This document shows positions 56,122-60,262 of a stretch of 64,000 bases of DNA, in pieces. Every line of letters starts with the position of its first letter. Position 1 is the first letter of the stretch. Under the pieces are notes generated by a model. The model had not been told where the DNA came from, did no database searches, and saw nothing but the letters and a program-made list of their open reading frames with translations. The stretch comes from Candidatus Acidiferrales bacterium (GTDB taxonomy: Bacteria; Acidobacteriota; Terriglobia; Acidiferrales; UBA7541). The DNA lies in NCBI GenBank assembly GCA_035934015.1, contig DASYYH010000016.1, positions 186,001 to 250,000 of the forward strand, read 5' to 3'. Position numbers and translations under genes: made by a program.

Positions 56122-56127
56122 TAGAAT
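56122..56127 (+). promoter_or_regulatory. -10 box giving a leaderless transcript
   Basis: TAGAAT ends 7 nt before ATG 56135, the first codon of the nucleoside hydrolase signal peptide. No ribosome site is visible. Confidence 0.45.
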
Positions 56128-56134
56128 GCCGCGC

Positions 56135-57286
56135 ATGACTCGCGCCTACTCTCGCTTTGCGCTTTTTGCTGGATTGTTTTTTCTCGTCGCTCTCGCCGCC
56201 TCCGCCCAATCCCCGCGCAAAATCATCATCGACGAAGACGCTCGCGGTCCCGCCACCACCGACCAGCAAGCCATCCTCGCCCTCATCCAGTCACCGCAAA
56301 CCCAAGTCCTCGGCGTCACCGTTGTCACCGGAGACGCCTGGCGCGACGACGAAGTCGCTCACACTCTCCGCATGCTCGAAATCATCGGACGCACAGACAT
56401 TCCCGTCGTCCCCGGCGCCGTCTTCCCTCTCGACAACTCCCCGCAGTTCATCGCCCATTGGGAAACGCTCTACGGCAAGGTCATCTATCAAGGCGCATGG
56501 AATTGGCCTCCCGGCCATACCCACGGCCCGTTCGAGATTCCTCCGCTCGTCGAAGGCGCGCCGCACACGCACGCCGCCGCCGAAGACGCCGCGCATTTCA
56601 TGATTCGCATGGTGCATCGCTATCCGCATCAAGTCACGATTTACGCTGGCGGCCCGCTCACGGACCTCGCGCTTGCCATCACGATCGACCCGCAATTCGC
56701 CTCGCTCGCGCAGGAACTCGTCGTCATGGGCGGCAGCATCAATCCGCAGACTTCCGATCCTGAATTCCGCCTCAATCCTCGCCGCGAATTCAATTTCTGG
56801 ATGGATCCCGAAGCCTCTCACGCCGTCCTGCACGCGCCCTGGGCGAAAATCACAGACACGCCCGTCGACATCTCCATCAAAACGCGCCTCACCAAGGAAA
56901 TGATCGCTGAAATCGCCAAATCCAATTCGCCCGCCGCGCAGTACATCGCCAAATACGCCGACTCCGAATACATGTGGGACGAGCTTGCCGCCATCGCCTG
57001 GCTCGATCCATCCATCATCACGCGCACCGAAAAGCTCTACCTCGACGTCTCCACCGACCCCGGCCCCACCTACGGCGACACCCTCGCCTGGTCCCCCGGC
57101 TCCCAACCAAGTTCGTTTGTCATTCCGAGCGAGTCCCGAGCGCCTTCCAGCGAGGGGCGACGGGGAACCTGCTGTTCTTATGTCGCGGCTCAGCCCATCA
57201 CCGTAAACGTCGACCTCAACACGGCGAAGTTCTACCGCGACTTCGTCCAGCTCATCTCCAGCCCCACACCGCGGGCGCGTCGGTAG
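56135..57286 (+). CDS. Secreted nucleoside hydrolase-like protein with in-frame repeat
   Basis: A 383-residue protein with a signal peptide (ALFAGLFFLVALAASAQ). The inosine-uridine hydrolase fold follows, with IIIDEDARGPATTDQQ (a spaced version of the DTDxGxDD calcium site), VTGDAWRDDE, YAGGPLTDLALAI and VVMGGSI. Family members cleave N-ribosides to ribose and base. Near the C-terminus (about 329-350), SFVIPSESRAPSSEGRRGTC is encoded by a dispersed repeat inserted in frame between SPGSQP and AAQPITVNVD. ATG 56135 is chosen by the -10 box; ATG 56126 is the alternative. Confidence 0.88.
   Translation: MTRAYSRFALFAGLFFLVALAASAQSPRKIIIDEDARGPATTDQQAILALIQSPQTQVLGVTVVTGDAWRDDEVAHTLRMLEIIGRTDIPVVPGAVFPLDNSPQFIAHWETLYGKVIYQGAWNWPPGHTHGPFEIPPLVEGAPHTHAAAEDAAHFMIRMVHRYPHQVTIYAGGPLTDLALAITIDPQFASLAQELVVMGGSINPQTSDPEFRLNPRREFNFWMDPEASHAVLHAPWAKITDTPVDISIKTRLTKEMIAEIAKSNSPAAQYIAKYADSEYMWDELAAIAWLDPSIITRTEKLYLDVSTDPGPTYGDTLAWSPGSQPSSFVIPSESRAPSSEGRRGTCCSYVAAQPITVNVDLNTAKFYRDFVQLISSPTPRARR
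57117..57178 (+). repeat. Dispersed GTCATTCCGAGCGAG repeat inside a gene
   Basis: TTGTCATTCCGAGCGAG (57117-57133) and CGACGGGGAACCTGCTGTTC at the end match the ends of the intergenic copy at 59928-59980. The middle differs in sequence and length. It adds about 21 codons without breaking the frame. Confidence 0.65.
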
Positions 57287-57357
57287 TTAAATTTTCCTTA
57301 TTCGACGGAATTCCATTTGTCCTAGCCAGCCCAAACTGCGACAATGGCCGCGAAATC

Positions 57358-57702
57358 ATGAAATCCCTTCGCGAAACGCTCGTAGCCTCGCACATCGCTG
57401 CCGTCGCAGTCGCTGTTCTCATCCTCTTTTCGTTTGACCGCTTAGTCCGTGCGATTTTGGAGGCGCTCCCCACCGCCGCGTATTTCGTCGCCACGGCAAT
57501 AGCGATTCGAGGCATGCCCTACGTTTCCTCAAGAACCGGTCTCTTGGATCAGTTTGGGTTGGCTCCAGTGCTCTATAATCTGTTCTCGGCAGTTGTGAGT
57601 TTTGGCTTCGCATATCTTCTTTCTCGGTATGCCTACGGCGTTGGTCCGTTTACCTCTCTAAGAAAGTATCGTCCACTCCTCGCAGGGAGGAACCATGTCT
57701 AA
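57358..57702 (+). CDS. Small membrane protein
   Basis: A 114-residue protein with about three helices (ASHIAAVAVAVLILFSF; AYFVATAIAIRGM; LYNLFSAVVSFGFAYLL). It overlaps the next small membrane protein gene by 8 bp, so the two probably form a pair. Family unknown. The ATG is preceded by GACAATGG, a possible -10 region. Confidence 0.65.
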   Translation: MKSLRETLVASHIAAVAVAVLILFSFDRLVRAILEALPTAAYFVATAIAIRGMPYVSSRTGLLDQFGLAPVLYNLFSAVVSFGFAYLLSRYAYGVGPFTSLRKYRPLLAGRNHV

Positions 57703-58015
57703 ACGAGTGAAGGGAGCTCTCGTGGAGAGCTATATCGGCGCGATCGCTTTGGGATATCTACTCGCGGAGTCGATTTTGTATCTCATTAGTTTCGTTGCCG
57801 CGCCAGAAACGGCCTGGGCTCAGCAGCAATATCGATCAGCACTGTCCGTTCACGTGTCCTGGGCTGCTCTTGCTGGAGCCTACGCAATCGATCCTCTGGT
57901 TAAATTCATCATACTGATTGTTCTCTGGTACATCCTCCTGCGCTGGCTCTACCTCGAAAAACCAGCCACGCAAACATCGGCGCCAGCACCCGCTCCTAAT
58001 CAACAGTCCACATAA
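57695..58015 (+). CDS. Small membrane protein
   Basis: A 106-residue protein with about three helices (IALGYLLAESILYLISFVAA; LAGAYAIDPLVKFIILIVLW) and a Pro/Ala/Gln-rich tail. GGGAGG lies 4 nt before the ATG. It is coupled to the previous gene. The function of the pair is unknown. Confidence 0.7.
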   Translation: MSKRVKGALVESYIGAIALGYLLAESILYLISFVAAPETAWAQQQYRSALSVHVSWAALAGAYAIDPLVKFIILIVLWYILLRWLYLEKPATQTSAPAPAPNQQST

Positions 58016-58097
58016 ATCTGTTGTCTCCGCTCGCACAGGGCCAATTCCAATTGGCAATCCTGCTCCACAGCGCGGTACACTATTCGCCGTCTACAAA

Positions 58098-59000
58098 ATG
58101 AAACTAGGGCTCCCTCTCGACAAATTTCCCAAGAAATCGCTTCCCGCTTTGCTTCTTCCTCTATTGGCTGCGGTCTTTCTTTTTCCGCGCGCTGCCCGCG
58201 CCCAAGACAACTACGAAATCCAGGTCTACCCCTCCGAAACCATGGCGCCCAAAACTCTCCTCGTCGAACTCCACAGCAATCTCACAGCGCAAGGAAGCAC
58301 CACGACTCAATTCGGCATGCTGCCCACGGAAGATCAGGAACACGAAACTGTTGAATTCACGGAAGGCATTAACGACTGGTCCGAAATCGGCTTCTATGTT
58401 TTCACTGCGGAACAAAACGGCCACGGCATTCAATGGGTCGGCGACCACATCCGCCCGCGCGTTCGCATCCCTCCCAGTTGGCACTGGCCCGTCGGCGTCA
58501 GCCTCTCAACGGAATTCGGCTACGCTCGCCCGGCATACTCCAATCCCACCTGGTCCTGGCAAATCATGCCTATCGTCGACCAAACCATCGGCCGTTGGTA
58601 TTGGTCCGTGAACACCACCCTGGTCGATGACGTTCACGTTGTTCCCCCGCCCTCCAATTTCACGCCCGTCGAGCAGCAAACTTATTACCGCGACGTCGCG
58701 CCGCGCGGCCTCACGTTCAGCCCTGCCGCCACGCTCACTTACCAACCCTCGAAATATTACAATTTCGGCATCGAGTACTACGCTTACTACGGCAAGTTCG
58801 GCGATTTCGTCACCCTCCACAATCAGCAACAGCAAATCTTCCCCGTCGTGAATCTCTTCGTCTCGCCCAAGTGGGAAATTAATATCGGCGCGGGCTGGGG
58901 CGCCACCGCTGGCACTGACCATCTCATTCTCAAGTGCATCATCGGCCGCTACTTCAACTGGTCACACCTTCGCCCCGGAAGCTCCAAGAACACGCAATAG
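58098..59000 (+). CDS. Outer-membrane beta-barrel-like protein
   Basis: A 300-residue protein with a signal peptide (LLLPLLAAVFLFPRAARAQ). Alternating amphipathic strands rich in aromatic residues follow (SEIGFYVFTAEQNGHGIQW; YYNFGIEYYAYYGKFGDF) and a C-terminal IIGRYFNWSHLRPG. It resembles proteins annotated as outer-membrane beta-barrels or transporters. The family is not assigned. ATG 58098 is the first codon before the signal peptide. Confidence 0.75.
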   Translation: MKLGLPLDKFPKKSLPALLLPLLAAVFLFPRAARAQDNYEIQVYPSETMAPKTLLVELHSNLTAQGSTTTQFGMLPTEDQEHETVEFTEGINDWSEIGFYVFTAEQNGHGIQWVGDHIRPRVRIPPSWHWPVGVSLSTEFGYARPAYSNPTWSWQIMPIVDQTIGRWYWSVNTTLVDDVHVVPPPSNFTPVEQQTYYRDVAPRGLTFSPAATLTYQPSKYYNFGIEYYAYYGKFGDFVTLHNQQQQIFPVVNLFVSPKWEINIGAGWGATAGTDHLILKCIIGRYFNWSHLRPGSSKNTQ

Positions 59001-59040
59001 CCTCCCATCCCGCGCACGATTTGACGATTCACCAGTGCCG

Positions 59041-59499
59041 CTATTCGAACTCGAAGTGGAAAATGTCTACGACGATATTGGTTCGCCGATTCCACAGTAC
59101 GAGATGGCCGCCGATGATCACGTGCTCGCAATCCGGAGGCGGAGGGGGCAATTCCTGCTCAAGATCTTCCGGGCAGCGATGCATTCTCTTTTCGAGACCT
59201 GGCGGAAGATGACCGCGAAGCACCAGTTGCCTTTCCAGTCCGGGCGGCAATCGGTCGCGCCTTGCCAATCCGGGAGGTAAGTCGCCTTGGTCTTCGTGTT
59301 CGTGATACCAGCGGTATACGTGATCGCTCCCGCCATGATCTCTATACCACCCGCCCTGGTCTTCGTCGTCGTGATGCTTTCCCTGGCCGTGTCCATGGCC
59401 ATGGCCGTGTCCATTCCCGTTGCCCTGTGCGAAGGCGGAGACCCCGCTCAGTGCGAATATCGAGCTGATGCAGATGACTGTCCACCATCGGATCTTCAT
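59041..59499 (-). CDS. Secreted His/Gly-rich protein with LPPGL repeats
   Basis: A 152-residue protein with a signal peptide (ISSIFALSGVSAFA), then NGNGHGHGHGHGQGKHHDDE, a segment likely to bind metal ions. Three LPPGL repeats follow (LPPGLARRD, LPPGLERQL, LPPGLEKRM) and an acidic/Pro tail. Similar periplasmic proteins (RcnB/CigR-like) occur widely and some affect metal handling. The role here is unknown. Confidence 0.75.
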   Translation of the reverse strand: MKIRWWTVICISSIFALSGVSAFAQGNGNGHGHGHGHGQGKHHDDEDQGGWYRDHGGSDHVYRWYHEHEDQGDLPPGLARRDRLPPGLERQLVLRGHLPPGLEKRMHRCPEDLEQELPPPPPDCEHVIIGGHLVLWNRRTNIVVDIFHFEFE

Positions 59500-59846
59500 T
59501 TGAGCCTCCTGGAGGAGAATGTCTTTATCTTACTTGGACGGCTCTATTTCAGTGCAGGAAACCGCCTCCTGTGTTCTTATCATCGCAACAGCGCCTGCCT
59601 CCTTTACGCCGGAGGAGTTCGCTGCCAGCCTTTTTTTAGTGGAATCAACGACCCATTGTTTTTTTCATCTCTGCCCAGCCCATCGCCGCCAACGCCGGCT
59701 TCACCGCCAACAACCCCGTCCCCACATTTTTCCACTGCCGCAACCAAACTCACATGGACTTCGACTTTATGCTCCTCTTCCACTACTCTTGACGCGTTCC
59801 TCGCGTCAATCCTGAGCGCATTTTGCGAAGGACCTGCTTTGTCGCC

Positions 59847-60166
59847 TTCGTAGGGGCGCTGCTTGCTGCGCCCGCCGCGATGCCCCGCATCGCGAAGCGA
59901 ATCATCGGCGCGCGCTCGCACTAAACGTTGTCATTCCGAGCGAGGATGCGACGAGCATCCGACGAGGAATCTGCTTTTCGCCTCTGCGGGTGCCCCATCC
60001 TGAGCGCTCTGTGCGAAGGGTGGGCTGCGGTGCATAGCGTAGGCCTGCCGGCTATGGCCGGCTCGGCTCTCAGCCTGTGGGCTTTCGTAGGGGCGGGGCC
60101 TGCCCGCTGTGGCAGGGACCCGCTTCTTGTCTTCGTTTTTCGTAGGGGCGCTGCTTGCTGCGCCCG
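59847..60166 (+). repeat. GTAGGGGCGCTGCTTGCTGCGCCC repeats
   Basis: Copies begin TTCGTAGGGGCG at 59847, 60084 and 60139. The first and third continue GCTGCTTGCTGCGCCCG, forming a GGGCGC/GCGCCC hairpin. Each is followed by a second palindrome (CGCGATG/CATCGCG after copy 1; GCCCGCC/GGCGGGC after copy 3). This resembles REP elements. Confidence 0.65.
59928..59980 (+). repeat. Dispersed GTCATTCCGAGCGAG repeat, intergenic copy
   Basis: It starts TTGTCATTCCGAGCGAG and ends GACGAGGAATCTGCTTTTCG, with an internal GGATGC/GCATCC hairpin. The ends match the copy inside the nucleoside hydrolase gene. Confidence 0.6.
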
Positions 60167-60262
60167 CGCCGGCCCGCCTTTGGCGGGCGATGCCCCGAGT
60201 CGCGTTTACCGCTGCGGCGGGCGAGTCCCGGGCCCTTCTGCGAGGGACAACGAGGAACTTCT

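What the first reader, a model, noticed from the sequence alone, without database searches (positions are those of the whole stretch)
57117..57178. Dispersed repeat inserted in frame in a nucleoside hydrolase gene
About 62 bp that match an intergenic repeat (59928-59980) at both ends lie inside the coding sequence, adding about 21 residues between SPGSQP and AAQPITVNVD without a frameshift. This is a direct case of a palindromic repeat being turned into protein sequence.
Basis: partly seen in the sequence, partly recalled or inferred. Interest (0 to 1): 0.5.

Follow-up and report, generated by a model that had tools for sequence, protein, structure and literature searches.

The report
In-frame palindromic repeat inside hydrolase gene
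A short repeated DNA element that is scattered through this bacterium's genome landed inside an enzyme gene without breaking it, so that about twenty repeat-encoded amino acids now sit in what looks like a floppy loop of the protein; this kind of event is known from other bacteria, but here relatives with the empty site document it well.

Summary
Confirmed. Window 57118-57176 is a copy of a dispersed hairpin repeat, in frame in a nucleoside hydrolase gene (56126-57286). A copy in another species of the genus, between two other genes, is 53/55 identical. Eleven of 12 close relatives' genes lack it; net gain is 21 codons against one and 23 against the other ten. The sister species G003 (tree support 97/94) keeps the repeat's 3' end at the same place with a different inner-hairpin subtype, again in frame. 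The rest of the gene is under purifying selection (dN/dS 0.13), and the insert is modelled as a low-confidence turn between two C-terminal strands. Best reading: a tolerated insertion of a REP/MITE-like element, as with Rickettsia palindromic elements; a function of the added residues is not shown. No second protein-coding copy was found among the own-genome copies examined. In another genus of the same family, a phage-like gene carries such repeats, of two families, in 11 of 15 N-terminal linkers; that is the more surprising result.

The parts
56126..57286 (+). nucleoside hydrolase gene (386 aa; signal-like N-terminus by eye; IU_nuc_hydro domain at residues 33-321)
   Evidence: ORF; PF01156, 182 bits; nucleoside hydrolase fold
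57118..57176 (+). in-frame copy of the dispersed repeat, TGTCATTCC...CTGCTGTT; codons 332 to 351 (first base)
   Evidence: aligned with empty sites
57110..57190 (+). approximate limits of the segment that is absent or different in relatives (exact ends not resolvable; net +63 nt against G002, +69 nt against the other ten)
   Evidence: codon listing of 13 loci
59929..59974 (+). copy of the same repeat family outside the gene, with another inner hairpin (GATGC-GACGA-GCATC); G003 has the copy with the same flank (L137)
60218..60258 (+). copy of the same subtype as the one in the gene, without the GTCATTCC head
   Evidence: best local alignment of 57119-57176 to the rest of the window, score 23

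Best explanation
A REP/MITE-like, probably non-autonomous hairpin repeat was inserted into the nucleoside hydrolase gene in the common ancestor of this species and its sister G003, at a turn between two C-terminal beta strands. Because the net length is a multiple of three and the copy has no stop codon in the frame used, the gene stayed open and the turn grew by 21-23 residues (shown by comparison). The event was tolerated (supported by purifying selection on the rest of the gene and by the modelled position) and was probably close to neutral (inferred). Since then the inner part has changed: G000 has a CCCGAGC/GCGAGGGG inner part, G003 a GCCCGCC/GGTGGG one, both found in dispersed copies of the same family, while GGAACCTGCTGTTCTTAYGTC at the 3' end is shared. 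The mover is unknown; the one Y1 (IS200/RAYT-type) transposase gene found in the genome is bracketed by a different repeat.
For: Dispersed family. The 53/55 copy in G004 lies between an exonuclease VII gene and a thioredoxin-like gene. Empty sites. Sister grouping of G000 and G003, ultrafast bootstrap 97 / SH-aLRT 94. Shared 3' end but other inner hairpin in G003, whose insert matches other places in G003 (C308, 90% over 31 nt, E 1.8e-5; C41, 92% over 26 nt, E 4.2e-4). dN/dS 0.127 between G000 and G003 outside the insert. Residues 333-353 have pLDDT below 50 and lie between strands 319-322 and 358-364. Hairpin nature of the family. Y1_Tnp: one match, flanked by GGGCGGGCCTGAAGGCCGCCCCTACGG.
Against: The copy in the gene does not itself fold better than shuffles. 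The family's copies are not richer in open frames than shuffles (4.45 against 4.40 of 6). G003 lacks the 5' half, so a second insertion there cannot be excluded. No target-site duplication was seen. The turn is also long in distant homologues (L022-L024), so its length varies for other reasons too. Expression was not tested.
Confidence: 0.88

Rival explanations
1. Native coding sequence that resembles the repeat by chance, or that was the source of the repeat.
For: The segment is open and in frame.
Against: Absent from 11 of 12 close relatives' genes; 53/55 identity to a copy between two other genes in G004, whose own hydrolase gene has the empty site.
Confidence: 0.02
2. Two separate insertions, one in G000 and one in G003, at the same turn, of two subtypes of the family.
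For: The inner parts belong to different dispersed subtypes; a phage-like gene in the same family shows different repeats in the same linker from species to species.
Against: The two inserts share GGAACCTGCTGTTCTTAYGTC, the end of which (TTAYGTC) is not common to the other copies, as expected of one event followed by turnover of the inner hairpin.
Confidence: 0.2
3. The insert was kept because it does something: a new loop function (for example the CC pair in a secreted protein) or an mRNA hairpin near the 3' end.
For: The GTCCSYV part is kept in both sisters with one synonymous change.
Against: The inner residues are not kept between the sisters; the loop has low model confidence; the RNA of this copy does not fold better than shuffles. 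A short shared stretch is also what recent ancestry gives.
Confidence: 0.08

Closest known systems
Rickettsia palindromic elements (RPE), protein-coding palindromes
   Same: Dispersed hairpin repeat found between genes and also in frame within conserved genes (as told in passages of PMC2229807 and PMC3733652, and section 15 of the latter).
   Different: Acidobacteriota, not Rickettsia; about 59 bp against 105-146 bp; one protein-coding case found among the own-genome copies examined; product not tested. RPE sequences were not compared.
CGTC-tagged REPs (PMC3733652)
   Same: Unpaired TGTC tag (a variant the paper allows) followed by a stem that begins with AT; no transposase found bracketed by it; intragenic units known.
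   Different: Outer stem of 5 bp (ATTCC/GGAAT) around a variable inner hairpin, not 8-9 bp with a 4-5 nt loop; tail CTGC, not mostly CCA; Acidobacteria are not among the five phyla that the paper names for CGTC repeats.
ERIC/RU-1, YPAL/RU-2 and Correia elements fused in frame to ORFs (PMC2229807, passages)
   Same: Small mobile repeat read as protein inside genes.
   Different: Larger (107-168 bp in that account); sequences not compared here.

Membership tests
Protein-coding palindromic repeat (RPE-like event) | copy of a dispersed repeat inside a conserved gene, in frame | tested here: met
Protein-coding palindromic repeat (RPE-like event) | homologues with the empty site | tested here: met
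Protein-coding palindromic repeat (RPE-like event) | palindromic structure | tested here: inconclusive
   met for 31 family copies, not for this copy alone (z -0.23)
Protein-coding palindromic repeat (RPE-like event) | translated product keeps its function | not testable with these tools
   only purifying selection and a model
Rickettsia palindromic elements proper | RPE sequence | not tested
   RPE sequences were not compared
CGTC-tagged REP | CGTC, TGTC or CCTC tag followed by a stem starting with AT | tested here: met
   T before GTC in 18 of 18 copies chosen; stem ATTCC/GGAAT
CGTC-tagged REP | stem of 8-9 bp, loop of 4-5 nt | tested here: not met
   5-bp outer stem and a variable inner hairpin in the copies drawn
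CGTC-tagged REP | tail, mostly CCA | tested here: not met
   tail is CTGC
GTAG-tagged REP with RAYT | GTAG tag and a RAYT gene flanked by the repeat | tested here: not met
   TGTC tag; the single Y1_Tnp match is flanked by another repeat
IU_nuc_hydro nucleoside hydrolase | domain match and fold | tested here: met
   PF01156 182.1 bits against a cut-off of 34.2; Foldseek E 1.4e-22 to 6zk1_B

The most novel reading that the evidence does not exclude
In this family of Acidobacteriota, dispersed hairpin repeats are a running source of species-specific protein linkers: disordered turns and linkers between domains repeatedly take up, swap and lose in-frame repeat copies (several repeat families, same sites), so that a linker can be replaced wholesale by another hairpin subtype without breaking the gene. 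The hydrolase loop (different subtype in two sisters) and the linkers of a terminase-linked, portal-like gene would be two instances of one process.
Probability: 0.3. Interest if true: 0.65.

Novelty: new member of a known kind. Interest (0 to 1): 0.45.

Why it matters
Short hairpin repeats are usually treated as lying between genes. A case with empty sites, a sister with a different subtype at the same codon, selection on the host gene and a modelled position shows how such DNA becomes protein sequence without loss of the gene. I found no such report for Acidobacteria in the searches; that library lacks most subscription journals, and the supplementary gene list of PMC3733652 was not seen. 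With the linker hot spot in the phage-like gene, the question how often repeats supply linkers becomes countable in a clade with dozens of genomes.

Tried and rejected
A dedicated mover: one Y1_Tnp match in the genome, bracketed by a different repeat; rejected as the evident mover. 'The repeat family is built to be coding': rejected, open frames equal shuffles.

Other protein-coding copies in the own genome. Of the 30 loci with a head match (one search gave 34 matches, 4 without a locus), 21 have a tail by rule (the rule also passes 109 of 848 arbitrary positions); L052, L059 and L068 look like chance matches within genes by eye, leaving 18. Of the 30 tail loci (45 matches, 15 without a locus), 24 have a head and 9 of these are new, which makes at least 27 copies. 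Twenty open frames of 150 aa or more spanning 15 loci were scanned with Pfam. Hits: peptidase M19 (domain 127-486, repeat at 40-54), Fe-S_biosyn (55-157, repeat at 26-39) and superoxide dismutase (94-287, repeat at 22-35), each with the repeat before the domain and before the likely start, judged by eye; and NAD kinase in L187, a headless chance match. Copies without such a frame were judged by open frames only. So no second protein-coding copy was found, but unannotated genes without a Pfam domain could hide one.

In relatives, one search gave 46 matches; 29 new loci (26 of relatives, 3 of the own genome) and L108 were read. Six frames were scanned: one Fe-S_biosyn domain beyond the repeat (L136), no other hit; L111 proved real through its homologues. 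A motif search in papers gave one irrelevant paper; a variant motif gave 150, the 20 listed irrelevant by title.

Faults on the way: read minus-strand loci in the wrong orientation, put right. Alignments failed on stop codons; L100 and L101 were dropped. The model's alignment holds the window and 31 of the 38 loci; L087, L097, L100, L101, L103, L105 and L106 were left out (partial matches or stops).

Full report
What was claimed. About 62 bp of a dispersed palindromic repeat lie in frame in a nucleoside hydrolase gene at 57117-57178.

The gene. The ORF 56126-57286 encodes 386 residues with an inosine-uridine preferring nucleoside hydrolase domain at 33-321 (PF01156, 182 bits). A model built on 32 sequences (mean pLDDT 81.5) has the nucleoside hydrolase fold; the best solved chains are plant, archaeal, trypanosomatid and bacterial nucleoside hydrolases. 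The N-terminus looks like a signal peptide by eye. Relatives are mostly Acidobacteriota MAGs, the nearest labelled Candidatus Acidiferrales.

The repeat. The head GTCATTCCGAGCG is found 34 times in the 3.37-Mb genome with up to one mismatch, against 2 for the reversed control; the tail CGAGGAAYCTGCTGTT 45 times with up to two mismatches, against 6. At least 27 copies in the genome have both ends (three chance matches set aside by eye). Laid side by side, the copies consist of TGTC, an outer half-stem ATTCC, GAGC, an inner hairpin whose sequence differs by subtype (GATGC-NNNNN-GCATC, TCCCGAC...GTCGGGA, TCCCGAGCG...CGAGGGG, GCCCGCCGTGGCGGG and others), CGAGGAAT and CTGC. The base before GTC is T in 18 of 18 copies chosen. 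Folding of 31 copies from the five genomes of the genus is better than of shuffles (mean -17.86 against -13.27, sd 0.48). The exact 15-mer GTCATTCCGAGCGAG occurs in 14 of 61 genomes of a family sample; 33 of its 46 matches lie in this genus (11, 2, 3, 6 and 11 in G000, G001, G002, G003 and G004); the reversed control has none in the 61.

The copy in the gene. 57119-57176 aligns with the TCCCGAGCG...CGAGGGG subtype: 53/55 with a copy on contig C197 of G004, 50/57 with C23:95267 of the own genome, 48/54 with a copy in G003. The G004 copy lies between an exonuclease VII large subunit gene and a thioredoxin-like gene, with no Pfam match in the one frame of 150 aa that spans it. Within the window the best other match is a headless copy at 60218-60258 (score 23; the copy at 59929 scores 15); 20 shuffles of the segment score at most 16 against the whole window.

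Empty sites. In 13 loci of 60-100% identity to the window protein's first 330 residues, the turn after YG(D/N)T reads, for example, PGNNPGLGERPVTVN in G004, PGKNPGTGEQLVIVN in G001, PGNQPAAVSSLKPITVN in G002. Only the window (PGSQPSSFVIPSESRAPSSEGRRGTCCSYVAAQPITVN) and G003 (PGNQPDSGTGSPAVVGTCCSYVTSQPITVN) have more. In a second collection 32 loci were listed and only L069, the same G003 contig, has extra residues. In three more distant homologues (L022-L024) the turn is long with unrelated residues. G000 and G003 group together in a tree from the region before the insert (97/94). The insertion is therefore derived and falls on the branch above these two, with dS about 0.35 between them.

The sister. 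G003's extra DNA shares GGAACCTGCTGTTCTTAYGTC with G000 and then departs. Searched against the five genomes of the genus, its part GGCTCGCCCGCCGTGGTGGGAACCTGCTGTT matches other places in G003 (C308, 90% over 31 nt, E 1.8e-5; C41, 92% over 26 nt, E 4.2e-4), weaker ones in G000, G004 and G001, and none in G002. In 5 of the 11 loci read, by eye, the same hairpin stands within the same repeat family, for example TGTCATTCCGAGCTT-GCCCGCCGTGGCGGG-AATCTGC in G000:C26 (L195); in two no such hairpin was found. So both sisters have repeat-derived codons at one place, of different subtype, both in frame. One insertion with later turnover of the inner hairpin is the simpler reading because the shared stretch runs on past the repeat consensus; two insertions are not excluded.

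Consequence. The rest of the gene is under purifying selection (dN/dS 0.127 between G000 and G003 over 357 codons; 0.048-0.218 to four others, with dS 0.9-2.2). The insert is the longest stretch with pLDDT below 50 (333-353), in a turn between strand 319-322 and strand 358-364, before the last helix. There, added residues would be expected to do little harm. I found no sign that the repeat is adapted to be coding: its copies have 4.45 open frames of six, shuffles 4.40. Neutral toleration is therefore the best supported reading; a function is not shown.

Mover. One Y1_Tnp match was found. It is bracketed by GGGCGGGCCTGAAGGCCGCCCCTACGG repeats, not by this family. CGTC REPs likewise have no bracketed transposase in the account of PMC3733652 (passages).

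Other genes. In the own genome no second protein-coding copy was found among those examined (limits in Tried and rejected). Among the loci of relatives read, one copy (G008) lies in a long conserved ORF. Its homologues (17 of 61 genomes searched) show, between ADG(N/S) and G(P/A/V)N(N/F/L/Y)E near the N-terminus, a linker that differs by species. Linkers of 15 of these 17 genomes were read. By rule, 5 of 15 carry the GTCATTCC repeat (as inverted pairs in L140 and L141; in L139 the pair is seen by eye with a diverged left end) and 6 of 15 a GTAG-tagged hairpin; 4 of 15 carry neither (L144, L145, L154, L157); shuffles of a linker pass either rule at most 5 times in 300. Inverted repeats alone are not beyond shuffles in all of them. 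The L141 linker matches 11 to 41 places in each of five genomes, its own included, with only 40 candidates a genome scored. The L156 linker matches 16 places in its own genome, 8 of them on the two contigs that carry this gene, and none in two others. By eye, two further linkers of this gene (between two CPxCG knuckles, and before LLLPSVPVDQLLDDH) carry such peptides too. A terminase-like gene lies upstream in G008 (PF03237, 24.8 bits against 22), so the gene is probably portal-like (inferred from its neighbour); it has no Pfam match itself, and its first 563 residues none in NCBIfam or PHROGs.

Against the known. In-frame palindromes and REPs within genes are described: RPE in Rickettsia (19 reading frames; a guanylate kinase with the insert is active; PMC2229807, passages) and GTAG/CGTC REPs in several species, including different REPs at about the same site of recB in two Xanthomonas species (PMC3733652, section 15). 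The original RPE papers were not read (one was not held); they are cited through those two. I did not find this motif or an Acidobacteria case in print. I file the event as a new member of a known kind, and the repeat as CGTC-like but not a CGTC REP, because stem length and tail were tested and not met.

Noticed in passing
L138-L157 (G008, G092, G090, G101 and others, another genus of the same family); e.g. L191:2445-5117: A conserved gene of about 890 aa next to a terminase-like gene carries in-frame dispersed repeats, of the GTCATTCC or GTAG type, in its N-terminal linker in 11 of 15 genomes tested, different from species to species; two more linkers of the gene seem to carry them by eye.
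   Followed up: partly
window 59809-60260: Cluster of several repeat types: two identical 29-nt copies TTCGTAGGGGCGCTGCTTGCTGCGCCCGC (59847, 60139), a related one at 60081, two ATCCTGAGCGC...TGCGAAGG copies (59809, 59997), the GTCATTCC copy at 59929 and a headless copy at 60218.
   Followed up: no
L107 (G000:C3, around 26493): The only Y1_Tnp match in the genome is flanked on both sides by GGGCGGGCCTGAAGGCCGCCCCTACGG repeats, the usual picture (recalled) of a RAYT with its own REP.
   Followed up: partly
L120, L122, L129, L130 (other genera of the family): There the repeat stands as inverted pairs (GTCATTCCGAGCGAGGCGAGGAATC...GATTCCTCGC...GGAATGAC), MITE-like by eye, while in this genus it is mostly a single unit with an inner hairpin.
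   Followed up: no
L069 4135-5110 against window 57287-59974: The copy at 59929 has its counterpart in G003 about 0.9 kb downstream of the hydrolase gene, against 2.6 kb here; by eye the stretch of about 58100-59800 of the window is missing from that place in G003.
   Followed up: no
L175 (G000:C27:242735) and L136 (G004:C147): In two species of the genus a copy of the repeat stands just before a Fe-S_biosyn (IscA-type) gene; whether the copies are orthologous was not tested.
   Followed up: no
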